From positions 1-64,000 of the forward strand of contig CAIZHQ010000006.1 of the NCBI GenBank assembly GCA_903932865.1: a stretch of 64,000 nucleotides of DNA, read 5' to 3'. This DNA comes from an uncultured Burkholderiales bacterium (GTDB lineage: Bacteria > Pseudomonadota > Gammaproteobacteria > Burkholderiales > Burkholderiaceae_C). Numbering within the stretch: position 1 is the stretch's first letter; every line of letters starts with the position of its first letter. A program made the position numbers and the translations under genes. A model generated the notes under the pieces. The model was not told the DNA's origin, made no database searches, and was given only the letters and a program-made list of their open reading frames with translations. Below, in pieces: positions 21,240 through 34,297 of the stretch.

Positions 21240-22214
21240 TCAATCCAGTGTGATCTTGGCGAAAGCCGCCACTTTTTTCCATTGCGCCGTGTCGGCCTGC
21301 ATGAAGTTGCCCAAGCCTTGAGCATTGGCCCAGGCGGGCTCGGCACCGGCTTTGAGCATGGCGGCTTTCACCTCGGGCTGGTTGGCCACGCGCTCCAGCG
21401 CTTGCTCCAGCTTTTGCGCAATCGGCGCAGGCAAGCCCGCAGGCGCGGCCACACCAAACCAGGCAAACACCTGGTAACCCTTCATGCCCGCTTCTTCCAT
21501 GGTGGGCACATTCGGCAAGGCGCTGCTGCGCTGGGGCGTGGTCACGGCCAAGGCTTTGAGCTTGCCGCCGTTGATCAGGCCCAGCGCCGAGGGCAGGTTG
21601 TCAAACATCATGTTCACCTCGCCCGCCATCAGGCCCGTGAGACCTGCGGCCGCGCCCCGGTAAGGGATGTGCGTGACGAAAGCGCCCGACTGGCTTTTGT
21701 ACAACTCGGCGCTCAGGTGCAGCGAGGTGCCCTGCCCGTTGGAGGCGTAATTGAGTTGACCCGGCTTGGACCTGGCCAGCGCAGTCAGTTCAGCCAGGGT
21801 GTTGATGCCCGATGCCGGGTTGACCACCAGCACGTTGGGCACGCGGCCCAGCAAGGCCACCGGGGCGATTTGCTCGGGCTTGTAAGGCAGCTTGCTGTAC
21901 AGCGCGGGGCTGATCGTCAACGGGGGCGAAGCCATGAGCAAAGTGTAGCCATCGGCCGCCGCACGCGCCGCCTCGGCCGCACCCAAGTTGCCACCGGCAC
22001 CGGGCTTGTTGTCGATGACGATGGGCTGGCCCAATTCGAGCGCCAGTTTGGGTGCGACCAGACGGGCCATGTTGTCAATCAGGCCGCCGGGGGGAAAGGG
22101 CACCACCAGCTTGATGGGGCGGGTGGGCCAGGCTTGGGCCCACGCTGACGAAGCCAGAAAAGGCGAGGCCATGGCCAAGGCGGTAGCGGCTACGAGCCAA
22201 TTTCTGCGTTGCAT
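21240..22214 (-). CDS. Tripartite tricarboxylate transporter receptor (Bug family), sugar-acid operon
   Basis: A 324-residue periplasmic solute receptor with signal peptide MQRRNWLVAATALAMASPFL (cut near SSAWAQA). The start of the mature protein, WPTRPIKLVVPFPPGG, and PLTISPALYSKLPY are typical of Bug/TctC proteins. It is the first gene of the operon leading to ltnD, so it probably binds threonate or a related tetronate. The TctA/TctB membrane partners are not in the window. Confidence 0.9.
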   Translation of the reverse strand: MQRRNWLVAATALAMASPFLASSAWAQAWPTRPIKLVVPFPPGGLIDNMARLVAPKLALELGQPIVIDNKPGAGGNLGAAEAARAAADGYTLLMASPPLTISPALYSKLPYKPEQIAPVALLGRVPNVLVVNPASGINTLAELTALARSKPGQLNYASNGQGTSLHLSAELYKSQSGAFVTHIPYRGAAAGLTGLMAGEVNMMFDNLPSALGLINGGKLKALAVTTPQRSSALPNVPTMEEAGMKGYQVFAWFGVAAPAGLPAPIAQKLEQALERVANQPEVKAAMLKAGAEPAWANAQGLGNFMQADTAQWKKVAAFAKITLD

Positions 22215-22243: not shown

Positions 22244-22448
22244 TCATCATACAAATTTTGGACTCTCCCTGCATCAGGGTGAACACGGACAAGGGCGGAG
22301 GCAGTCTTGTTTATTCAGACGGCAAACTACCCAGTGCGGTCTGTCTTGCTCAGGCAGTTGCCCGTGCTCGGCGACCAGCCGTTACACACTTGTTGTGTTT
22401 TGCGGCCCCCACCCGCCATAGATGGCTTGCGTCACGGCGCACCCGTTC
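22244..22448. other. Non-coding gap upstream of the toxin-antitoxin region
   Basis: Apart from the half-site noted at 22245-22256, these 205 bases hold no convincing gene, RNA or promoter. The short open frames have no recognisable product or ribosome-binding site. Confidence 0.5.
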
Positions 22449-22500
22449 GTCATGGCGCCGTGATCCTGTCATTGCGAGGCCGCAGGCCGTGGCATTCCAC
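22449..22500 (+). repeat. Left copy of the repeat flanking the toxin-antitoxin pair
   Basis: The 32 bases at 22449-22480 (GTCATGGCGCCGTGATCC to CATTGCGAGGC) match 23215-23246 in the same orientation at 27 of 32 positions. From 22468 it runs on as a GTCATTGCGAGG...GGCATTCCA palindromic element, the same type as 23258-23290. This GTCATTGCGAG..CAATCCA family is a widespread dispersed intergenic repeat in proteobacteria. Confidence 0.7.
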
Positions 22501-22524
22501 GCAGTAACCCGTTTCAGGGACGCA

Positions 22525-22580
22525 TTGACGTCACTCGCCAGAAGTCAGCTATATAATAAAACTTATATATTTAATGGAGG
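22525..22580 (+). promoter_or_regulatory. Promoter and inverted-repeat operator of the toxin-antitoxin operon
   Basis: TTGACG (22525-22530) could be a -35. TATAAT (22552-22557), or the overlapping TATATA, could be a -10, though the spacing is longer than ideal. The -10 lies inside the inverted repeat TATATAA (22550-22556), 6-base spacer, TTATATA (22563-22569). A site covering the -10 suits repression by the antitoxin, the usual autoregulation in such modules. GGAGG at 22576-22580 is the ribosome-binding site. Confidence 0.55.
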
Positions 22581-22584
22581 CGTT

Positions 22585-22812
22585 ATGTTGAGCTTTAAAG
22601 TGACCACCGTCGGTGCATCAGAGGGTTTGATCCTGAACAAGGAGGCCAAGCGCATTTTGAATGTGCAAAAGGGCGATACGCTTTTTATGACCGAAGCCCC
22701 TGACGGCGCGATGCGCATCACGCCCTACAGCCCAGAGTTTGAGCGGCAGATGGCCTTGGCCGAGTCGATCATGCACGACGACCGCGAGATCCTGCGCGTT
22801 CTGGCCAAATGA
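22585..22812 (+). CDS. AbrB/SpoVT-type antitoxin
   Basis: A 75-residue protein beginning MLSFKVTTVGASEGLILNKE, with the V-T-x-x-G-x-S-x-x-x-x-x-P/N-K-E pattern of swapped-hairpin AbrB/MazE DNA-binding domains. An acidic helical tail follows (EFERQMALAESIMHDD) that would wrap the toxin. The start at 22585 has GGAGG 4 bases before it; a longer open frame to 22258 crosses the promoter and repeats. It overlaps doc by ATGA. It should neutralise Doc and repress the operon through the inverted repeat upstream. Confidence 0.85.
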   Translation: MLSFKVTTVGASEGLILNKEAKRILNVQKGDTLFMTEAPDGAMRITPYSPEFERQMALAESIMHDDREILRVLAK

Positions 22813-23204
22813 GCTGGCAGTGGGTCCACCGCGACACTGTGTTTGCGGTCCATGACAAGCAGTTGGCCGTGCATGGCGGCTTGGATGGCATACGGGACCT
22901 CAACGCGGTGGAGTCAGCGCTGCATCGGGCCCAAAACCTCGACGCTTACGGCAAACCAGGTCCCGATGCAGCAGACTTGGCTGCAGCCTACATTTTTGGC
23001 ATCGCCACCAGCCACGGGTTCAACGATGGCAACAAACGCACCGCATGGGTGGTCGGTCGCTTGTTTTTGGCCATCAACGATCAAAAGCTGGTGTTCGATC
23101 AGCTCGACGCCATCTACTTCATGCTGGCTGTTGCCGCCGGCAACATGACCCAGCCGCAAGTCGCCCAATGGATAAGGCAACGACTGGTGACGTCTTTGCC
23201 GTAA
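22809..23204 (+). CDS. doc: Doc/Fic-family toxin (death on curing)
   Basis: A 131-residue Fic-fold protein with the Doc core HGFNDGNKRTA (catalytic His, phosphate-binding N-D-G-N-K-R) near residues 77-87 and the N-terminal LHGGLDGIRD-like segment (VHGGLDGIRDLNAVESAL). Doc enzymes phosphorylate elongation factor Tu and stop translation. The gene overlaps its antitoxin by four bases. The partner is an AbrB-type antitoxin, unlike the Phd partner of the P1 prototype. Confidence 0.92.
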   Translation: MSWQWVHRDTVFAVHDKQLAVHGGLDGIRDLNAVESALHRAQNLDAYGKPGPDAADLAAAYIFGIATSHGFNDGNKRTAWVVGRLFLAINDQKLVFDQLDAIYFMLAVAAGNMTQPQVAQWIRQRLVTSLP

Positions 23205-23214
23205 CACTTCACCC

Positions 23215-23290
23215 GTCACGGGGCCGTGATTCCATCATTGCGAGGCGCGCCCCTTCCGTCATTGCGAGCAGCCTGCGACGCGGCAATCCA
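23215..23290 (+). repeat. Right copy of the repeat flanking the toxin-antitoxin pair
   Basis: 23215-23246 repeats 22449-22480 directly, with 5 mismatches in 32. A second unit, GTCATTGCGAGCAGCC to GGCAATCCA (23258-23290), follows at once, so the right side holds two tandem CATTGCGAG units. The array starts 10 bases after the doc stop. Confidence 0.7.
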
Positions 23291-24776: not shown

Positions 24777-25059
24777 GCAAGTCTCCAAAATATGTATGTG
24801 ATGAGGTTTGTGAATCCAGTTCAAAATCCTGAAAAAACACCAATGCACTGAACTCCCCGTCATCTTGTTGGGTGAATAACCATCAATATGTCGCTTTCGT
24901 TACATGGGTTTTTCGCGATCAATCCTGCTGGATCGGGCCTTGGCGACCGGCCAGTTTGGATCGATACAGCCGGTCCTGTCACCCCCACAGCTGCCCTCGC
25001 TCAGAAATCCGGTTACGCTCCAAAACCTCACAACACCCTTGCCCTGTCCGGTTCCGTTC

Positions 25060-25917
25060 ATGCCCAAGTTCACCCGTCTTTGGCCCCTTGTGGCCCTGTG
25101 GCTGTTGCAAGCCTGCAGCAGCCTGCCCCCTGAAACCTACACGCCCAAGCTGGGGCAAATGGGCAAAGACGTGATGTGGTTGCCCACTCGGGACGAACTG
25201 GTCACACAGATGCTGGCGGCCGCACGCGTCGGCCCCGATGACGAGGTGGTGGACCTCGGCGCGGGCGACGGCAAGATCCCGATCGCGGCGGCGCGGCAGT
25301 TTGGGGCGCGGGCCTGGGGCATCGAATACAACAAGGACCTGGCCGCACTGGCCCAGCGCAACGCGCAGCGGGCGGGCTTGGCCGAGCGGGTGCGCATCGT
25401 GCATGGCGACATCTTCAAGGAAGATTTCTCCAAAGCCACGGTGGTCACCATGTACCTGCTGGAAGAGCTGAACGCGCAATTGCGCCCGACCATTTTGGCC
25501 ATGCGCCCGGGTACGCGGGTGTTGTCCAACACGTTTTCAATGGGCGACTGGGAGCCCGACCAAGTCATTCGCGCAGGCACCAACACGGGCTATTTCTGGA
25601 CCGTGCCTGCCCCTGTGGCAGGCCAGTGGTCGGTGCAGGGTCTGGCCCCGCAAGGGCCAGCTGTGCTGCGGCTGAGCCAGCGCCATCAGCGCTTGGGAGG
25701 CTCGTTGGCCTGGGGTGGGCAAACGCAAACCCTGGTCGGTGCGCGCCTGCACGGCGCTGACTTGCACTTCAGTTTTGTCCAGGCCGACGGGCAGCTCAAA
25801 GCCGTCCAGGCCCGGGTACAGGGACCATCGTTGCAGGGCGAAGTGGTCGGGCCGTATGGCATGGTCGATATCCAGCCCGAAGTCGTGAAAGTCACGGGCG
25901 AACGCCTGGGCGATTGA
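25060..25917 (+). CDS. SAM-dependent methyltransferase with lipoprotein-like N-terminus
   Basis: A 285-residue protein. The start at 25060 gives MPKFTRLWPLVALWLLQACS, a textbook lipoprotein signal (LQA-C at residue 19). A Rossmann methyltransferase domain follows: motif I VVDLGAGDGK (63-72), acidic IEYNKD, HGDIFKED, then TMYLLEELN and LSNTFSMGDWEPDQ. The latter segments resemble DOT1/FAM173-like protein-lysine methyltransferases. The last 95 residues form a separate beta-rich domain. It lies 30 bases upstream of the reductive dehalogenase and is probably co-transcribed. A SAM enzyme outside the cytoplasm would be odd, so the hydrophobic end may be an inner-membrane anchor. Confidence 0.72.
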   Translation: MPKFTRLWPLVALWLLQACSSLPPETYTPKLGQMGKDVMWLPTRDELVTQMLAAARVGPDDEVVDLGAGDGKIPIAAARQFGARAWGIEYNKDLAALAQRNAQRAGLAERVRIVHGDIFKEDFSKATVVTMYLLEELNAQLRPTILAMRPGTRVLSNTFSMGDWEPDQVIRAGTNTGYFWTVPAPVAGQWSVQGLAPQGPAVLRLSQRHQRLGGSLAWGGQTQTLVGARLHGADLHFSFVQADGQLKAVQARVQGPSLQGEVVGPYGMVDIQPEVVKVTGERLGD

Positions 25918-25947
25918 CGATCGTCCTCAACCCCACGGGCACCCACC

Positions 25948-28900
25948 ATGCGATTGTTTTCTTACCGTGACCGCCCGGTGCACCTGGGGCCTTATCCGTT
26001 GGAGCGCCTGCACCGCATGCATGCCGTGCCCGATGACAGCGGCCTGCCGCCCATGCAGGCGCTGCGCTTTGCAAAAGATGACCCTGAATCTTTGTCGCAC
26101 GCCATGGCCCGCTACATGGCCATGTTTGACTTGGTGCGCGACGGCGCGGTCAACCCCAAAGAGGGGGAGATTCCGACCGACCCGACCGAGCGGGCCCAGC
26201 ACCTGAAGGCCGCAGGTTATTACTTTGACGCGTCGATGATGGGCGTGTGCGCCCTGCCCGCGTCGGCTTGGCTGGTCGAGCCGATCCGCAACCCCGCCGT
26301 GCCTGCTTTGGGCGAAGAATTGGCGCAAAGCCAGCCCGCCAGTTTTGCGGCAGGCATGGACATGATCTTGGCCGATGTGCTGGATTCGGCGCGCACGGTG
26401 CACGGGCCGATAGCGCACCACAGCCACGCCATCATGATCCTGGTGGAATTTGCGCGAGACCCTAAAACCAATGAGCCCGGTTGCGACTGGTTGGCGGGCA
26501 CGCAGGCCCAACGCGCCAGCGTGTTGGCTGCGCAAACGGCGGTGCTGTTGTCGAGCTATTTGCGCATGCTGGGTCACGAGGCCCGCGCCCACAGTGCCAG
26601 CTGCAGCGACGTGGATTTGGGCCGCTTGGCTTTGGCCGCTGGCCTGACGTTGGGCGACGGCGAGAACCCGTATGTGGGCCAGCGCTTCGCCTTGGCTGCC
26701 GTCAGCACCACGCTGGCACTGGCCCCTGATCAGGCGCTAGCCCCGCAGCAAAACCGCTGGCAGAGCCACGGCCCCGCTTGGTGGCTGGGGCTGGGCACGT
26801 TCAAGAGCGCGTTTCACCAAGACGCTTTTGCGCAGCGTGAGTTTCGCCAAGGCGCACACCCGTTTGAATCCCTCAAGCGCCAGGCCACGCCCACCACCTT
26901 CATCGACCATGACCGGGTGCCGCGCTTTCCCAAGCGGGCCGACTTTTTTGCCCGCGCCTTGTTTGGCGATTTGGGCAAGACCGTGCAAGACAGCGCGAAG
27001 AACGCGCACTACGTGATGAAAAGCCCCATCGGGGCCTGCGCGCGCCGGGCGCTGGGGGCTTTGCTGCTCTTGCAGTTTGGTCCAGCCCGTGGCCCGGTGG
27101 CCGCCAGCACGCAAGACCCACAGCGCAATGCCGACAACCTGAAAGCCGCTTCGTACTACTTGGGCGTGGACGCGGTGGGCCTGTGCGCCGTGCCCGAATG
27201 GGCCTATTACTCGCACGACGCGGGCGGCAACCCCATGCCCGCGTACCACGCCAACGCTGTGAACCTGCTCATTGACCAAGGCCACGAAACCATGGAAGGT
27301 GCCAGCGGCGACGACTGGATTTCGGTGGCGCAAAGCATGCGGGCGTATCTGCGGTTTTCGCTCATGGGCGGCATCCTGGCCGAGCAAATTCGGCGGCTCG
27401 GTTATTCGGCCCGGGTGCATTCGGTGCTGGACGGCGATGTGTTGCAGCCGCCTTTGTTGCTGCTCTCGGGATTGGGTGAAGTCAGCCGCATTGGCGAGGT
27501 GATCCTCAACCCGTTTTTGGGGCCGCGCCTGAAAAGCGGCAGCGTGACCACCGACCTGCCCATGGCCCCTGACCAGCCCATTGACTTTGGCCTGCAAAGC
27601 TTTTGCGAAAGCTGCAACAAGTGCGCCCGAGAATGCCCTTCGGGGGCCATCACCGCAGGCCCCAAGCTGATGTACAACGGCTACGAGATCTGGAAAAGCG
27701 ACGCTGAAAAATGCGCCCGCTACCGCATCACCAACGCGGCAGGCGGCATGTGCGGCCGGTGCATGAAAACCTGCCCCTGGAACCTGGAAGGCCTGCTGGC
27801 CGACAGCCTGTGGCGGCAAGTGGCCATGAAGCTGCCCGCCGCCGCACCGGCGCTCGCGCGGCTCGATGACTTGCTGGAGCGCGGCAGCATCAACCCGGTC
27901 AAAAAGTGGTGGTGGGACATCGAGCTGGACAAAGACTCTGGCCGCTATGTTCGGGCCGCGCAAACACACCGCCGCACCCTGCAAAAAGACCTGGACCTGC
28001 GCTACGAAGACCAGACACTGGCCGTGTACCCGGCCGACAAAATGCCGCCGCCGTATCCGGTGACTTATCCGGTCAACCGCGAAGAGGGCATTGCCCGCTA
28101 CCAGGCTCTGCTCAGCCCTGCGCAGTACCAAGCCCGCTTGGCTGCAGGCCAGACCCACGGCTTGGCTCCGGGGCCTCAGCCCTTGCCCGCCGAGCCCCCC
28201 GTGTTCCCGGTGGTGCTGCACCGGCGCGAAGAGATGGCCGAAGGCCTGGCGCGTTACGAGTTCAAATCGCCCGATGGTGGCGAGCTGCCGCCGTTTGAGG
28301 CGGGCGGCCACATCGACGTGGTGATCGCCCCCGAATACCAGCGGCCCTACAGCCTGGCGGGCGACCCGGCCGACCGCAGCAAATATGTGCTGGGCGTGTT
28401 GCGCGAGCCGCCCGAACAAGGTGGGCGCGGCGGCTCGGCGCTGATGCACCGGGTGTTTCGCCAGGGGCGGCGCGTGTTCGTGACGCGCCCGGCCAACCAC
28501 TTTGCGCTGCACGAAGACGCCACGCACAGTTGGCTGTTTGCAGGCGGCATTGGCGTGACACCCATGATCGCCATGGCGCACCGCCTGCATGCGCTGGGCA
28601 AGCCCTTTGACTTTCATTACAGCGCGGCCAGCCGAACAACGGCGGGCTTTTTGAAAGACCTGGCCGAGGTGCCTTGGCTCGACCGAGTGAAGTTTCACTT
28701 CAAGGACGAAGGCCAGCGTGCCGATTTGATGCGGCTTGTGCCCGACTTTGCGCCGGGGCAGCATGTTTACACCTGCGGTGCGCCGCGCTTCATGGACGGC
28801 GTGTTCGAGGCCGCCATGGCGCATGGCTGGCCAGAAGACACACTGCACCGCGAATACTTCAGCGTGCCCGAAGCCGATGCTTGGGTGAACCAGCCCTTTG

Positions 28901-29166
28901 AGCTGGTGCTCAAAACATCAGGCCGCCGCCTGCAAGTGCCCGCAGATCGCAGCGCCACCGAGGTGCTGGCCGAGTCGGGCGTGGCCATCGATGTGAAATG
29001 CAGCGATGGCCTGTGCGGCGTGTGCGCCCGGCCTTACGATGTGCAGGCCTCTGACGCGGTGGAGCACCGCGACTTTGTGCTCAGCCAAAAAGAGCGGCAA
29101 CACAAAATCATCTTGTGCTGCTCACGCGCCCAGCATGCGGGGGGTGTGATCACCCTCGATTTTTAA
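25948..29166 (+). CDS. Self-sufficient cytoplasmic reductive dehalogenase fused to an FMN/2Fe-2S reductase
   Basis: A 1072-residue fusion that should remove halogen from (probably aromatic) substrates using cobalamin, two 4Fe-4S clusters and NAD(P)H. Residues about 390-615 are the catalytic RdhA part: CESCNKCARECP (553-564) binds one 4Fe-4S cluster, and Cys589 with CGRCMKTCP (602-610) the other. Tyr467, Lys529 and Arg593 have exactly the spacing (62 and 64) of Tyr426, Lys488 and Arg552 in Nitratireductor NpRdhA as I recall them. Residues 85-265 look like a duplicated cobalamin-fold region without clusters. Residues about 750-1072 are a phthalate-dioxygenase-reductase-like module: RPYSLAG (FMN), GGIGVTPM (NAD), CSDGLCGVC plus a late CC (2Fe-2S). 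No Tat signal or membrane anchor is present, unlike respiratory RdhA. The layout matches BhbA-type catabolic enzymes of aerobes. Confidence 0.92.
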   Translation: MRLFSYRDRPVHLGPYPLERLHRMHAVPDDSGLPPMQALRFAKDDPESLSHAMARYMAMFDLVRDGAVNPKEGEIPTDPTERAQHLKAAGYYFDASMMGVCALPASAWLVEPIRNPAVPALGEELAQSQPASFAAGMDMILADVLDSARTVHGPIAHHSHAIMILVEFARDPKTNEPGCDWLAGTQAQRASVLAAQTAVLLSSYLRMLGHEARAHSASCSDVDLGRLALAAGLTLGDGENPYVGQRFALAAVSTTLALAPDQALAPQQNRWQSHGPAWWLGLGTFKSAFHQDAFAQREFRQGAHPFESLKRQATPTTFIDHDRVPRFPKRADFFARALFGDLGKTVQDSAKNAHYVMKSPIGACARRALGALLLLQFGPARGPVAASTQDPQRNADNLKAASYYLGVDAVGLCAVPEWAYYSHDAGGNPMPAYHANAVNLLIDQGHETMEGASGDDWISVAQSMRAYLRFSLMGGILAEQIRRLGYSARVHSVLDGDVLQPPLLLLSGLGEVSRIGEVILNPFLGPRLKSGSVTTDLPMAPDQPIDFGLQSFCESCNKCARECPSGAITAGPKLMYNGYEIWKSDAEKCARYRITNAAGGMCGRCMKTCPWNLEGLLADSLWRQVAMKLPAAAPALARLDDLLERGSINPVKKWWWDIELDKDSGRYVRAAQTHRRTLQKDLDLRYEDQTLAVYPADKMPPPYPVTYPVNREEGIARYQALLSPAQYQARLAAGQTHGLAPGPQPLPAEPPVFPVVLHRREEMAEGLARYEFKSPDGGELPPFEAGGHIDVVIAPEYQRPYSLAGDPADRSKYVLGVLREPPEQGGRGGSALMHRVFRQGRRVFVTRPANHFALHEDATHSWLFAGGIGVTPMIAMAHRLHALGKPFDFHYSAASRTTAGFLKDLAEVPWLDRVKFHFKDEGQRADLMRLVPDFAPGQHVYTCGAPRFMDGVFEAAMAHGWPEDTLHREYFSVPEADAWVNQPFELVLKTSGRRLQVPADRSATEVLAESGVAIDVKCSDGLCGVCARPYDVQASDAVEHRDFVLSQKERQHKIILCCSRAQHAGGVITLDF

Positions 29167-29187: not shown

Positions 29188-29907
29188 ATGAGCACGGTCC
29201 AAAAAGTCTTCATCACCGGTGGCACCAGCGGCATTGGCGCGGCCATTGCCCGGGCTTTTGCCGCCACCGGCGCCAGCGTCACCGCCACCGGGGCCACACC
29301 TGCCGAGGTGGAGGCAGCGCAAGCCCTGAGAGCCAACCGCCTGGTCGCCTTTCATGTGCTGGACGTGCGGCAAAACGAACATGTGCAAAACGTGCTCGGT
29401 GAGTTTGGCGAATTCGATGTGCTGGTCAACTGCGCGGGCATCATCCAGCGCAATGTCGAACATGACCCCGAGGTGTTTGCGCAAACCGTGGACATCAACC
29501 TGAACGGCACCATGCGCACCTGCGCCGCCGCCCGGACAGGCTTGAAGGCCCGCCAAGGCTGCATCGTCAACACCGCATCCATGCTGAGCTTTTTTGGGGG
29601 AGGCCTCACGCCGGGCTACAGCGCCAGCAAGGGCGGCGTGGCCCAGCTGACCAAATCACTGGCCATTGCCTATGCGGCCGACGGCATCCGCGTGAACGCA
29701 GTGGCCCCGGGCTGGATCGCCACGCCTTTGACCAAAGCCTTGCAAGACGACGCCACACGCAGCGCACAAATTGTGGGCCGCACGCCCATGGGCCGCTGGG
29801 GCCAACCCGAAGACGTGGCCGATCCGGTGCTGTTTTTGGCCAGCCCAGCGGCGCGCTTCATCACGGGCGTGGTTTTGCCCGTGGATGGCGGTTACTTGAT
29901 CCAATAA
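29188..29907 (+). CDS. Short-chain dehydrogenase/reductase next to the dehalogenase
   Basis: A 239-residue classical SDR: cofactor loop TGGTSGIGAAIA, NCAG, catalytic Ser in NTASMLS, YSASK (Tyr/Lys), and PG after the active site. The C-terminus GVVLPVDGGYLIQ is typical. It begins 21 bases after the dehalogenase stop and is probably co-transcribed, so it may oxidise or reduce the dehalogenated product or regenerate NAD(P)H. The substrate cannot be read from sequence. Confidence 0.88.
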   Translation: MSTVQKVFITGGTSGIGAAIARAFAATGASVTATGATPAEVEAAQALRANRLVAFHVLDVRQNEHVQNVLGEFGEFDVLVNCAGIIQRNVEHDPEVFAQTVDINLNGTMRTCAAARTGLKARQGCIVNTASMLSFFGGGLTPGYSASKGGVAQLTKSLAIAYAADGIRVNAVAPGWIATPLTKALQDDATRSAQIVGRTPMGRWGQPEDVADPVLFLASPAARFITGVVLPVDGGYLIQ

Positions 29908-29920
29908 GCCCCACCAAGGC

Positions 29921-30238
29921 TCAGGGCTGAGGCCCCCATGGCGCGGACAGCATGAGCTTGTTTTGCTGTTCGGCAATCAGCGGCCGAATTTTGGCGGCAA
30001 AGGCCATGAAGTCGGCGTCGCCATAGACGCCAGCCCAAAAAGCCCGGCGATCGGCATCGTCGTCAAACTTCCAGATGTGGATCAGCTGGTTCAAGGCCCC
30101 CACATCGCCCGTGAAGTAACCCACCAATTTGGGCGGGTGCTTGGCCAGCACAGGCCAGCCCTCGTTTTTGTAGTGCGAGGTGAGTTCCGACATTTTCCCG
30201 ACGATGGCGTTGTAGGTGCGCAGCTCATAAATGGCCAT
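29921..30238 (-). CDS. NIPSNAP family protein
   Basis: A 105-residue single-domain ferredoxin-fold protein starting MAIYELRTYNAIVGKM, with the family segment LNQLIHIWKFDD and a late NKLMLSAPWG. NIPSNAP proteins are small dimeric alpha/beta-barrel proteins without an agreed function; bacterial copies often lie next to degradation genes. It is convergent with the SDR gene and 13 bases from its stop. Confidence 0.85.
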   Translation of the reverse strand: MAIYELRTYNAIVGKMSELTSHYKNEGWPVLAKHPPKLVGYFTGDVGALNQLIHIWKFDDDADRRAFWAGVYGDADFMAFAAKIRPLIAEQQNKLMLSAPWGPQP

Positions 30239-31624: not shown

Positions 31625-32593
31625 ATGATTCAACGTCGTGAAATTTTGACCTCCAGTCTGGGCATGGCCATGCTGTCGGCCGTGGGCTTGGCCCAGGCCC
31701 AATCCACCAAAACAGTGCGCATCGTGGTGCCCTTTGCCTCCAGTGGCGTGCAGGACACCCTGGCCCGCGCACTGTCGCAGGAAATGGGCGCAGCCTTGGG
31801 CCAAACGGTGATTGTGGAAAACCGACCCGGTGCAGGCGGCACTGTGGGCACCGGCTACGTGGCCCGCGCCGAGGCCGATGGCAGCGTGATGGTGGCCGCG
31901 GCCGCCAGCCACAACATTGCCGGGTCGCTCTACACCAAGCTGGCCTATGACCCGCAAAAGGACTTCACGCCACTGGCCCACATTGGCAGCGCGAGCTACG
32001 TGCTCATGGTGCACCCCGATGTGCCCGCCAAGACCGCCGCCGAATTCATCCGCCACGCCAAGGCCAACCCCGGCAAGATGAACTACGCCAGCGCAGGTGT
32101 GGGCAGCGCCACGCACTTGGCCATGGCTTACTTCACCGGTTTGGCGGGCATCGATGTGGTGCACATCCCGCTCAAGGCCACAGGCGAAGCCATCAACGAA
32201 GTGCTGTCGGGCCGTGCCCAGGCCGTGATTGCCGCGAGCATCGGGGCCCTGGCTTTTGCCAAAGACAGCCGCGTGCGTTTGTTGGGTGTGACCTCGCCAC
32301 AACGCAGCAAATACCTGCCCGATTTGCCCACAGTGGCCGAAAGCGGTTTGCCGGGCTACCAGTTCGATTCCTGGTTTGGTTTCCTGGGCCCTGCAGGCGT
32401 TTCCGCCGATCAGGCCAACCGCATCAACGCCGCCGTGAGCAAGTTGCTCAAAGACCCGGTGATTTTGGGACGTCTGGACAAGCAAGGCATCGAGCCGCGC
32501 GACATGAGCAACGCCGATTTCAGCAAGCTGTTGGCGGCCGACTATGTGCGCATGGCGCAGGTGGTCAAGGCCTCAGGCGCGAAGATCGACTGA
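31625..32593 (+). CDS. Tripartite tricarboxylate transporter receptor (Bug family)
   Basis: A 322-residue periplasmic receptor: signal MIQRREILTSSLGMAMLSAV, mature start STKTVRIVVPFASSG, then IVENRPGAGGTVGTGYVARA. AAGGAAA stands 6 bases before the start. It lies 38 bases after the argE-like gene, so an N-acyl amino acid or other carboxylate is a possible ligand. No membrane subunits are encoded nearby. Confidence 0.9.
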   Translation: MIQRREILTSSLGMAMLSAVGLAQAQSTKTVRIVVPFASSGVQDTLARALSQEMGAALGQTVIVENRPGAGGTVGTGYVARAEADGSVMVAAAASHNIAGSLYTKLAYDPQKDFTPLAHIGSASYVLMVHPDVPAKTAAEFIRHAKANPGKMNYASAGVGSATHLAMAYFTGLAGIDVVHIPLKATGEAINEVLSGRAQAVIAASIGALAFAKDSRVRLLGVTSPQRSKYLPDLPTVAESGLPGYQFDSWFGFLGPAGVSADQANRINAAVSKLLKDPVILGRLDKQGIEPRDMSNADFSKLLAADYVRMAQVVKASGAKID

Positions 32594-33334: not shown

Positions 33335-34120
33335 TCAGGCAAAGGTGTAGCCGTCCATGGCGATGACGTGGTCGCTGATGCCCCGGAAAAACGCCTCGGG
33401 CTGTGCATCGGGCCCCGCTGCGCCCAAAGCGGTGAACAGCGGCAGCAGGTGTTCATCCGTGGGATGGGCACGCTGGCCGGCGATTTGCTGACGGTAAGCG
33501 AGCAGACCGGGCACATCGCGGGCCATCATGTGGGCATGAATCCAGTCGGCAAAGGCCTGAACATAGGCGGGCGTGGCGCCGCCTTGCGAGCGCACGGCCA
33601 TCAAGTCGCGCAGGTTGTGGGTGATGTTGCCCGAGGCCAGCACCAGAATGCCTGGCTGCGCCAAAGGGGCCAGCGCCTGGCCCACGCGGTAAGCGTGTTC
33701 GGGGCCCAAATGGCTTTGCACCGACAGGGGCACCACGGGCACTTGGGCATCGGGAAACATCTGGCGCAGGGGCGTCCAGGCGCCGTGGTCCAGGCCGCGT
33801 TGGGCGTCTTGTGCCACTGAAAAGCCCGCCGCTTGCAGCGCGCTGACCACCTGAGTCGCCACTTCGGGGCTGCCCATGGCGGGGTATTGCATCTCGTACA
33901 GGCGCGGGTCAAAGCCGCCAAAGTCGTGAATGGTCTCGGGTCGGGTGGCAAAACCCACGGTGGGCACAGCGGTTTCCCAGTGCGGGCTGACCACCACAAT
34001 GGCCCGCAGGTCACCTAGTGGGGGCACCAATGCGCTCATGGCCGCGCCTGCCGCACCGGGGTGCAATGCAAACATGGGCGAGCCATGGGGGACAAACAAG
34101 ACGGATGAGGGTGTGTGCAT
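33335..34120 (-). CDS. DODA-type extradiol aromatic ring-opening dioxygenase (LigB superfamily)
   Basis: A 261-residue cytoplasmic protein with metal/active-site His residues in VPHGSPMFAL, VVSPHWETA, HDFGGFD, GLDHGAWTPL and SGNITHNL. It matches the 4,5-DOPA-dioxygenase/YgiD family, which cleaves catechol rings using a single metal ion. The natural substrate of bacterial members is often unknown. The start at 34120 (MHTPSSVLFVPHGSP) fits family length; sequence upstream in frame is not conserved. Confidence 0.9.
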   Translation of the reverse strand: MHTPSSVLFVPHGSPMFALHPGAAGAAMSALVPPLGDLRAIVVVSPHWETAVPTVGFATRPETIHDFGGFDPRLYEMQYPAMGSPEVATQVVSALQAAGFSVAQDAQRGLDHGAWTPLRQMFPDAQVPVVPLSVQSHLGPEHAYRVGQALAPLAQPGILVLASGNITHNLRDLMAVRSQGGATPAYVQAFADWIHAHMMARDVPGLLAYRQQIAGQRAHPTDEHLLPLFTALGAAGPDAQPEAFFRGISDHVIAMDGYTFA

Positions 34121-34297
34121 GGTGTGGATTTGGCTCTCAATATTTGGCTTCTGAGTGCCCCACTGTAGGCCAATGCAACGGTCACCTCTCTGTCTGTCTC
34201 GGGTTTGACCGACTTGTCGCAAAATGCGGCCACAATTTACCCATGGCCAAGGGCCTTTATTTTTTCATCGCCTCCCACTTGAATTCAGGAACACGAC

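What the first reader, a model, noticed from the sequence alone, without database searches (positions are those of the whole stretch)
25948..29166. Self-sufficient, NAD(P)H-driven reductive dehalogenase in an aerobic-type betaproteobacterial chromosome
One polypeptide joins a cobalamin/2x4Fe-4S reductive dehalogenase to a complete FMN/2Fe-2S reductase, with no Tat signal and no RdhB anchor. Organohalide-respiring enzymes are exported and need outside electron donors; this form should work in the cytoplasm with NAD(P)H alone, like BhbA of Comamonas. All eight 4Fe-4S cysteines and the four 2Fe-2S cysteines are present. The surrounding genes (SDR, methyltransferase) form an arrangement I do not know from described examples. 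No cobalamin synthesis genes are in the window, so B12 must be made elsewhere or imported.
Basis: partly seen in the sequence, partly recalled or inferred. Interest (0 to 1): 0.85.

Follow-up and report, generated by a model that had tools for sequence, protein, structure and literature searches.

The report
Self-contained freshwater bacterial dehalogenase enzyme
A freshwater bacterium carries one large protein that should strip bromine or iodine (perhaps chlorine) from phenol-like molecules using vitamin B12 and the cell's own reducing power; it belongs to an enzyme group already described, and the new part is its patchy, repeatedly lost presence in a common lake genus.

Summary
ORF 25948-29166 (+, 1072 aa) is a catabolic reductive dehalogenase fused to a phthalate-dioxygenase-reductase-type module. 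It passes the curated RDH cut-off (TIGR02486). Its RdhA part is 45% identical to NpRdhA over the aligned core; an AlphaFold model matches NpRdhA (TM 0.90-0.92 by target) and phthalate dioxygenase reductase. All eight 4Fe-4S and four 2Fe-2S cysteines are present in 48 of 48 fused sequences aligned; catalytic S/Y/K/R in 44 of 44 counted. The kind is published: JtRdhA is a self-sufficient, NADPH-driven example (PMC10463259). The 'arrangement' is Limnohabitans synteny, not a pathway cluster. B12 import genes with a riboswitch lie elsewhere in the genome. Added here: the enzyme sits in a mostly Burkholderiales clade, not BhbA's branch; 11 of 60 genus genomes hold the fused gene as one open frame, 10 of 60 a more distant RdhA, and four show remnants of the fused gene. 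Substrate unproven. New member of a known kind; modest interest.

The parts
25948..29166 (+). [quoted passage not shown]
26179..26739 (+). residues 78-264: vestigial second copy of the cobalamin-binding domain
   Evidence: BLASTP of residues 1-380 against 381-660: 27% over 192 columns, E 1e-14
26260..26415 (+). residues 105-156: insertion in the vestigial half, present in 48 of 48 fused sequences aligned and absent from the 2 reductase-free ones and from NpRdhA
   Evidence: PMC10463259 section 4 mentions an insert specific to RdhA-PDOR fusions that folds over the active site in its model; that it is this insert is inferred
27088..27927 (+). residues 381-660: functional cobalamin and 2x[4Fe-4S] core, strongest purifying selection (dN/dS about 0.01-0.05 against ten close orthologues)
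27334..27348 (+). S463, M464 and Y467 (NpRdhA S422, M423, Y426: substrate hydroxyl contact, pocket wall, proton donor)
   Evidence: 44 of 44
27532..27534 (+). K529 (NpRdhA K488)
   Evidence: 44 of 44
27724..27726 (+). R593 (NpRdhA R552)
   Evidence: 44 of 44
27604..27774 (+). eight cysteines of the two 4Fe-4S clusters (C553, C556, C559, C563; C589, C602, C605, C609)
   Evidence: 48 of 48
28213..29163 (+). residues 756-1072: phthalate-dioxygenase-reductase-like module (flavin/NAD(P)H part plus 2Fe-2S ferredoxin)
28999..29118 (+). four cysteines of the plant-type 2Fe-2S cluster (C1018, C1023, C1026, C1057)
   Evidence: 48 of 48
29188..29907 (+). SDR oxidoreductase, 21 bases downstream; possibly co-transcribed; no role in dehalogenation shown
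24904..25917 (+). class I methyltransferase of unknown target; upstream border of the optional rdhA slot
29921..30238 (-). NIPSNAP-family protein, genus backbone
31625..32593 (+). TctC-type substrate-binding protein (tripartite tricarboxylate transporter receptor), genus backbone

Best explanation
The gene encodes a soluble cytoplasmic catabolic reductive dehalogenase that carries its own electron supply. Inferred steps, by analogy with JtRdhA and NpRdhA: NAD(P)H gives a hydride to the flavin of the C-terminal module; electrons pass through the 2Fe-2S cluster and the two 4Fe-4S clusters to base-off cobalamin; the substrate, an ortho-halogenated phenol, sits over the cobalt with its hydroxyl held by S463, K529 and R593; the carbon-halogen bond is cut at the cobalt and Y467 gives the proton, releasing halide and the dehalogenated phenol for aerobic ring cleavage. 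The N-terminal half is a degenerate cobalamin domain standing in for the partner subunit of respiratory RdhAs. Brominated or iodinated hydroxyaromatics are the likeliest substrates; chlorinated ones are possible. Cobalamin is imported through a BtuB-like receptor and an ABC transporter. The gene is an optional trait of one Limnohabitans group, kept at one locus and lost more than once. Shown here: sequence, domain order, residues, predicted fold, phylogeny, selection, remnants of loss, B12 salvage genes. Not shown: activity, substrate, cofactor content, expression.
For: TIGR02486 over cut-off. NpRdhA is the top PDB match by sequence and fold; phthalate dioxygenase reductase and self-sufficient P450 reductase modules match the C-terminus; model mean pLDDT 85.5, pTM 0.83. 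Catalytic residues in 44 of 44 and cluster cysteines in 48 of 48 fused sequences aligned. Internal duplication. dN/dS of the catalytic core about 0.01-0.05 against ten close orthologues (nine named Limnohabitans, one named Comamonadaceae), so the enzyme is used. Precedent: JtRdhA, same domain order, NADPH:product 1:1, active in air (PMC10463259, abstract and sections 4, 10, 15). Own genome: cobalamin riboswitch, BtuB-like receptor, periplasmic binding protein, ABC ATPase, CobT, CobS; PobA over cut-off and five LigB-family hits for hydroxybenzoate-type products.
Against: PF13486 does not match. No halogen-specific gene adjoins it; the direct neighbours are generic. The BtuB-like protein scores 369.6 bits, below the BtuB cut-off of 599.7; the ORF at the permease position had no Pfam match. 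Close BtuB orthologues (at least 62% identical) are found in only 7 of 12 fused-carrier genomes and CobS in 3 of 12. Four pocket residues differ from NpRdhA (Y355, V356, V460, V493), so the substrate range is a guess. JtRdhA did not turn over chlorinated phenols (PMC10463259), which are probably the commoner organohalogens of fresh water (recalled, not looked up).
Confidence: 0.9

Rival explanations
1. It is a direct counterpart of BhbA, acting on 3,5-dibromo-4-hydroxybenzoate taken up by a TctC-dependent transporter and fed into 4-hydroxybenzoate catabolism.
For: Same fusion architecture, 52% identity to BhbA; TctC-type genes lie in the window (21240-22214 by similarity; 31625-32593 by Pfam); PobA and LigB-family genes exist in the genome. 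On pBHB ligAB and a TctC gene directly precede bhbA.
Against: BhbA and the Nitratireductor OM-1 enzyme pair with 100* support, outside the other 46 fused rows (that group 83, not starred), and have S, S and A where the window has Y355, V460 and V493. The TctC genes are genus backbone, present also beside the remnant of G026 (L099).
Confidence: 0.25
2. It is an epoxyqueuosine reductase-like (QueG) or other cobalamin/4Fe-4S enzyme without dehalogenase activity.
For: The core shares the class III cobalamin fold; TIGR00276 (QueG) matches weakly, 28.9 bits.
Against: QueG score is far below its cut-off of 200 bits while TIGR02486 is above its own; the RdhA catalytic S/Y/K/R set is complete; the vestigial duplication and reductase fusion match catabolic RdhAs.
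Confidence: 0.03
3. It is a non-functional or decaying gene.
For: Related genomes hold remnants: G011, G026, G045 and G047.
Against: The window copy is a full ORF with all catalytic residues and very low dN/dS in the core; 11 of 60 genus genomes, own included, hold it as one open frame.
Confidence: 0.03

Closest known systems
JtRdhA, self-sufficient catabolic RdhA of Jhaorihella thermophila (PMC10463259)
   Same: RdhA with duplicated cobalamin domain, no Tat signal, C-terminal PDR-like module; F291, S422, M423, Y426, K488 and R552 equivalents conserved (paper's sections 4 and 15; for the window)
   Different: From a moderately thermophilic marine bacterium; its sequence was not in hand here, so no identity is given. 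Substrates of the window enzyme unknown
BhbA of Comamonas sp. 7D-2 plasmid pBHB (locus L104)
   Same: Same fusion, 52% identical
   Different: Separate branch, three pocket differences, on an IncP conjugative plasmid among ligAB, TctC, porin and IS genes
NpRdhA of Nitratireductor pacificus (PDB 4RAS, 6ZXU, 6ZXX, 6ZY0, 6ZY1)
   Same: Fold of the RdhA part, catalytic and Fe-S residues, vestigial domain
   Different: Lacks the reductase module and the 105-156 insertion; differs at four pocket positions
Fused RdhAs of Limnohabitans, Ramlibacter, Hydrogenophaga and Rubrivivax records (among L001-L018)
   Same: 74-94% identical, full length
   Different: Different gene neighbourhoods outside the Limnohabitans group

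Membership tests
Catabolic self-sufficient reductive dehalogenase (RdhA-PDOR fusion) | RDH family core over the curated cut-off | tested here: met
   TIGR02486 183.9 vs 160.35 bits
[quoted passage not shown]
   Residues 78-264 vs 390-545, E 1e-14; fold match to whole NpRdhA
Catabolic self-sufficient reductive dehalogenase (RdhA-PDOR fusion) | Two 4Fe-4S motifs (eight Cys) | tested here: met
Catabolic self-sufficient reductive dehalogenase (RdhA-PDOR fusion) | Catalytic Tyr with Lys, Arg and Ser (NpRdhA Y426, K488, R552, S422) | tested here: met
   Y467, K529, R593, S463; 44 of 44
Catabolic self-sufficient reductive dehalogenase (RdhA-PDOR fusion) | C-terminal phthalate-dioxygenase-reductase module with 2Fe-2S cysteines | tested here: met
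Catabolic self-sufficient reductive dehalogenase (RdhA-PDOR fusion) | No Tat signal, no separate RdhB | tested here: inconclusive
   N-terminus and next gene read directly show neither; no signal-peptide predictor was available and RdhB was not searched genome-wide
Catabolic self-sufficient reductive dehalogenase (RdhA-PDOR fusion) | Binds cobalamin and flavin; NAD(P)H-driven halide release | not testable with these tools
   needs protein
Pfam Dehalogenase PF13486 | Match over the gathering score | tested here: not met
   no match
BhbA orthologue group | Groups with BhbA and shares its pocket residues | tested here: not met
BhbA orthologue group | Encoded beside protocatechuate 4,5-dioxygenase ligAB | tested here: not met
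   direct neighbours; a LigB-family gene lies about 4 kb downstream of rdhA (33335-34222)
QueG epoxyqueuosine reductase | TIGR00276 over cut-off | tested here: not met
   28.9 vs 200 bits

The most novel reading that the evidence does not exclude
Limnohabitans, a genus of freshwater plankton, runs a natural aerobic organohalogen-scavenging step in lakes. Its enzymes belong to a pocket class (Y355/V460/V493) distinct from BhbA and act on another substrate, for example halogenated 4-hydroxyphenylacetate or tyrosine-derived phenols from algae or zooplankton. The fused and the reductase-free RdhAs are alternative solutions that replace one another within the genus.
Probability: 0.25. Interest if true: 0.5.

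Novelty: new member of a known kind. Interest (0 to 1): 0.3.

Why it matters
Self-sufficient RdhAs are attractive for clean-up of brominated phenols because they work in air with NADPH. Finding conserved, selected copies in free-living freshwater Limnohabitans suggests a natural supply of halogenated phenols in lakes, and gives a genus with natural presence/absence pairs in which the role could be tested. The enzyme kind itself is already published.

Tried and rejected
PF13486 in the own genome gave nothing, also in its 14 controls, and was dropped in favour of TIGR02486. A functional gene cluster with the SDR or methyltransferase was rejected: the SDR follows rdhA in 10 of the 11 most similar loci (L001-L011, all but L010), but among the other 69 (L012-L080) only L023 has an SDR match downstream (34% identical, roughly 0.5 kb away) and seven have weak SDR matches upstream (29-40%). 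Several loci are cut by contig ends, so some absences are uninformative. De novo B12 synthesis was tested by CobI only: 51.4 bits against a cut-off of 163.25, read as another tetrapyrrole methyltransferase without further test. Strict exclusion of fused and distant forms was considered: no overlap among 12 and 10 genomes of 60, but a random draw gives that with probability 0.087, so it is only a hint. The pristine-empty-site idea for G045 and G047 was rejected: the 87-base gap still holds the end of rdhA. The promoter scan gave one site against 0.6 expected, not before rdhA.
Full report
What is there. The ORF at 25948-29166 (+) is complete: 1072 aa, ATG start. TIGR02486 (reductive dehalogenase) scores 183.9 bits against a cut-off of 160.35; Pfam gives 4Fe-4S domains and a sub-threshold 2Fe-2S domain, and not PF13486. 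The best solved relatives are NpRdhA for residues 1-104 and 157-737, and phthalate dioxygenase reductase and self-sufficient P450 reductase modules for about 755-1068. An AlphaFold2 model from 44 aligned sequences (mean pLDDT 85.5, pTM 0.83) matches NpRdhA chains with TM-scores of 0.90-0.92 by target length and 2pia with 0.71.

Anatomy. PMC10463259 (introduction read) names this duplication as the mark of catabolic RdhAs. Through the alignment printed, the NpRdhA residues that bind or protonate the substrate (passages of PMC7565698; PMC10463259 section 15) map to F334, S463, M464, Y467, K529 and R593, all unchanged and the same in 44 of 44 fused sequences counted, window included. Four pocket positions differ from NpRdhA: Y355 (F310), V356 (P311), V460 (A419), V493 (N452). 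V493 occurs in 43 of those 44, A in BhbA and OM-1, N in the two reductase-free Limnohabitans enzymes compared. The insertion 105-156 is present in 48 of 48 fused sequences and absent from those two; PMC10463259 section 4 describes an insert specific to RdhA-PDOR fusions; I infer it is the same one. The twelve cluster cysteines are present in 48 of 48.

Relatives. A scan of genome contigs confirmed 451 of 471 candidate stretches; the best 80 were kept and each matches over nearly the whole length. The nearest, L001-L009 and L011 at 91-94%, are Limnohabitans records except L011 (Comamonadaceae bacterium PBBC1); the window therefore lies in a Limnohabitans-like genome (contig C6, 191 kb; 3.77 Mb in all). 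Limnohabitans homologues sit in contigs of up to 1.02 Mb (L007), so a chromosomal place is likely. In a tree of 50 proteins the window falls in a clade of 15 (100*), labelled Burkholderiales, Betaproteobacteria or families of them except L030 (Fonsibacter bin) and L039 (unassigned Pseudomonadota), sister to alphaproteobacterial enzymes; BhbA and the Nitratireductor OM-1 enzyme pair (100*) outside the other 46 fused rows (83) (rooted on the two reductase-free rows; quick search, SH-aLRT only). In plasmids, 8 of 72,556 records hold at least 80% of the query in one place.

Selection. Against ten close orthologues (L001-L009, L011), dN/dS (Nei-Gojobori with Jukes-Cantor) is about 0.01-0.05 in the cobalamin core and about 0.1-0.2 in the reductase part. 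The gene is kept functional.

Gene neighbourhood. SDR, NIPSNAP, ArgE-like and TctC genes, and in part the methyltransferase, are the local Limnohabitans backbone; they do not travel with rdhA elsewhere. Elsewhere rdhA sits beside other things, each in a minority of loci: a MarR gene (cluster of 8 loci, one representative Pfam-checked), TRAP transporter parts, TctC genes (Pfam-checked in L016 and L026; annotated in L104), a VanA-like Rieske oxygenase (L030), cobS and cobT (clusters of 4 loci each, L038, L052, L053, L054; one representative of each Pfam-checked), and in L010 a fumarylacetoacetase-type, a glyoxalase-fold and a FAD-hydroxylase-type gene. On pBHB and pOM-1 ring-cleavage dioxygenase genes are close, on pOM-1 also pobA; in Ruegeria TM1040 and Aminobacter SS-2016 none was listed within 8 kb (plasmid gene tables are incomplete). 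The recurring themes are aromatic catabolism, solute uptake and B12, but none is universal.

Presence and loss in the genus. Of 60 genomes of the genus (own included), 11 have the fused gene as one open frame (G000, G007, G016, G021, G023, G027, G028, G038, G039, G043, G059); G049 has it in pieces on two contigs, seemingly in two frames on one. Ten have a more distant RdhA, 43-47% identical to the RdhA part: G001, G010, G025, G030, G032, G035, G045, G051, G055, G057. These are reductase-free where the frame ends inside the contig; G057 is cut by its contig and G055 is split by a stop; the two stops flagged for G032 lie outside the 694-aa frame seen. Remnants of the fused gene lie between methyltransferase and SDR in G011 (about the last 52 codons, with a stop), G045 and G047 (an 87-base gap that still ends in the rdhA tail), and before the SDR in G026, where no methyltransferase was found. 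In G047 the loss joins sequence near the start codon to the last eleven codons, at two similar 8-base stretches (window 25944-25951 and 29131-29138), which suggests deletion between short repeats. In G052 methyltransferase and NIPSNAP adjoin, with neither rdhA nor SDR; whether that is the older state or a bigger loss I cannot tell. No genome was found with both forms; G045 has the remnant plus a distant RdhA, but on a 5.5-kb contig of a 560-contig draft. By chance no overlap of 12 and 10 among 60 has probability 0.087. In a family-wide draw 7 of 200 genomes (own included) have an RdhA match at E 1e-100: own, three fused, one cut by its contig and two at 45%. The genus is thus enriched (22 of 60 against 6 of 199 others, Fisher p 4e-11), but relatives are not independent and the 199 include some of the same genus.

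Vitamin B12. CobS occurs in 7 of 60 genus genomes, the window's among them, and in 3 of 12 fused carriers. In the own genome a BtuB-like receptor (369.6 bits, below the BtuB cut-off 599.7), a periplasmic binding protein, an ABC ATPase and CobT lie next to CobS; an ORF at the permease position had no Pfam match. A cobalamin riboswitch precedes btuB (67.3 bits against 31.5). CobI is below cut-off. So the strain probably imports cobamides and can finish or rework the lower ligand; lack of de novo synthesis rests on one marker. Close BtuB orthologues (at least 62% identical) are in 7 of 12 fused carriers and 10 of 48 others (Fisher p 0.027, not corrected for kinship); two further carriers have only 33-34% matches, and three, drafts 62-84% complete, have no hit at the set threshold.

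Fate of products. PobA (690 bits, over cut-off) and five LigB-family hits are in the genome, one of them in the window at 33335-34222; another lies beside a second, sub-threshold PobA-like gene and a MarR gene. This is compatible with use of 4-hydroxybenzoate, not proof of a linked pathway.

Compared with what is known. PMC10463259 (abstract, introduction, sections 4, 10 and 15 read) divides RdhAs into four subfamilies, two of them catabolic, and shows that the fused JtRdhA is driven by NADPH with 1:1 coupling, also in air, on bromo- and iodophenols and not on the chloro analogues tested. Its tree lists Burkholderiales RdhAs (JOSHI_001, Noviherbaspirillum, Ottowia), though the text I saw does not say which subfamily each falls in. 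PMC13101508 (abstract and passages) says putative bhbA homologues are widespread in the Roseobacter clade and describes a marine catabolic debrominase. Three held papers name both Limnohabitans and 'reductive dehalogenase'; in the two I looked into, the passages are a genus table row and remarks on the genus in nitrogen and sulfur cycling, besides references; the third (PMC8704592) was not opened. Searches for 'catabolic reductive dehalogenase' and for a six-term combination with Burkholderiales and freshwater listed no title on this genus. The library lacks most subscription journals, so absence from print is not shown.

Verdict. A sound observation, correctly interpreted in its main line, of a published enzyme kind. 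What is added is the mostly Burkholderiales clade, its distinct pocket class, its optional place and repeated loss in Limnohabitans, and a genomic answer to the B12 question.

Noticed in passing
L091:8707-10785, L095:7840-9921 (G001 and G032): Reductase-free, NpRdhA-like RdhA genes of the genus lie near a haloacid-dehalogenase-like hydrolase and GST genes, perhaps a small dehalogenation island.
   Followed up: partly
L094:8693-10906 (G030): Another reductase-free RdhA sits beside a ring-hydroxylating dioxygenase alpha and beta pair.
   Followed up: partly
L015:3385-4638: A phage-type integrase lies about 1.4 kb from the fused rdhA in a Hydrogenophaga bin, hinting at island transfer.
   Followed up: no
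L038, L052, L053, L054: cobS and cobT lie within about 2-4 kb of rdhA in four alphaproteobacterial loci, a genomic link between this enzyme and B12 (one representative of each checked).
   Followed up: partly
window 22258-23204: Small upstream ORF plus a Fic/DOC-family gene (PF02661), resembling a Doc-type toxin-antitoxin pair; the part of the small ORF that was scanned (22588-22809) had no Pfam match.
   Followed up: no
window 22448-22480 and 23214-23246: A 33-base direct repeat, 85% alike, on either side of the Fic/DOC gene.
   Followed up: no
L112:5297-5543 (own genome C15): Cobalamin riboswitch before a BtuB-like receptor gene.
   Followed up: yes
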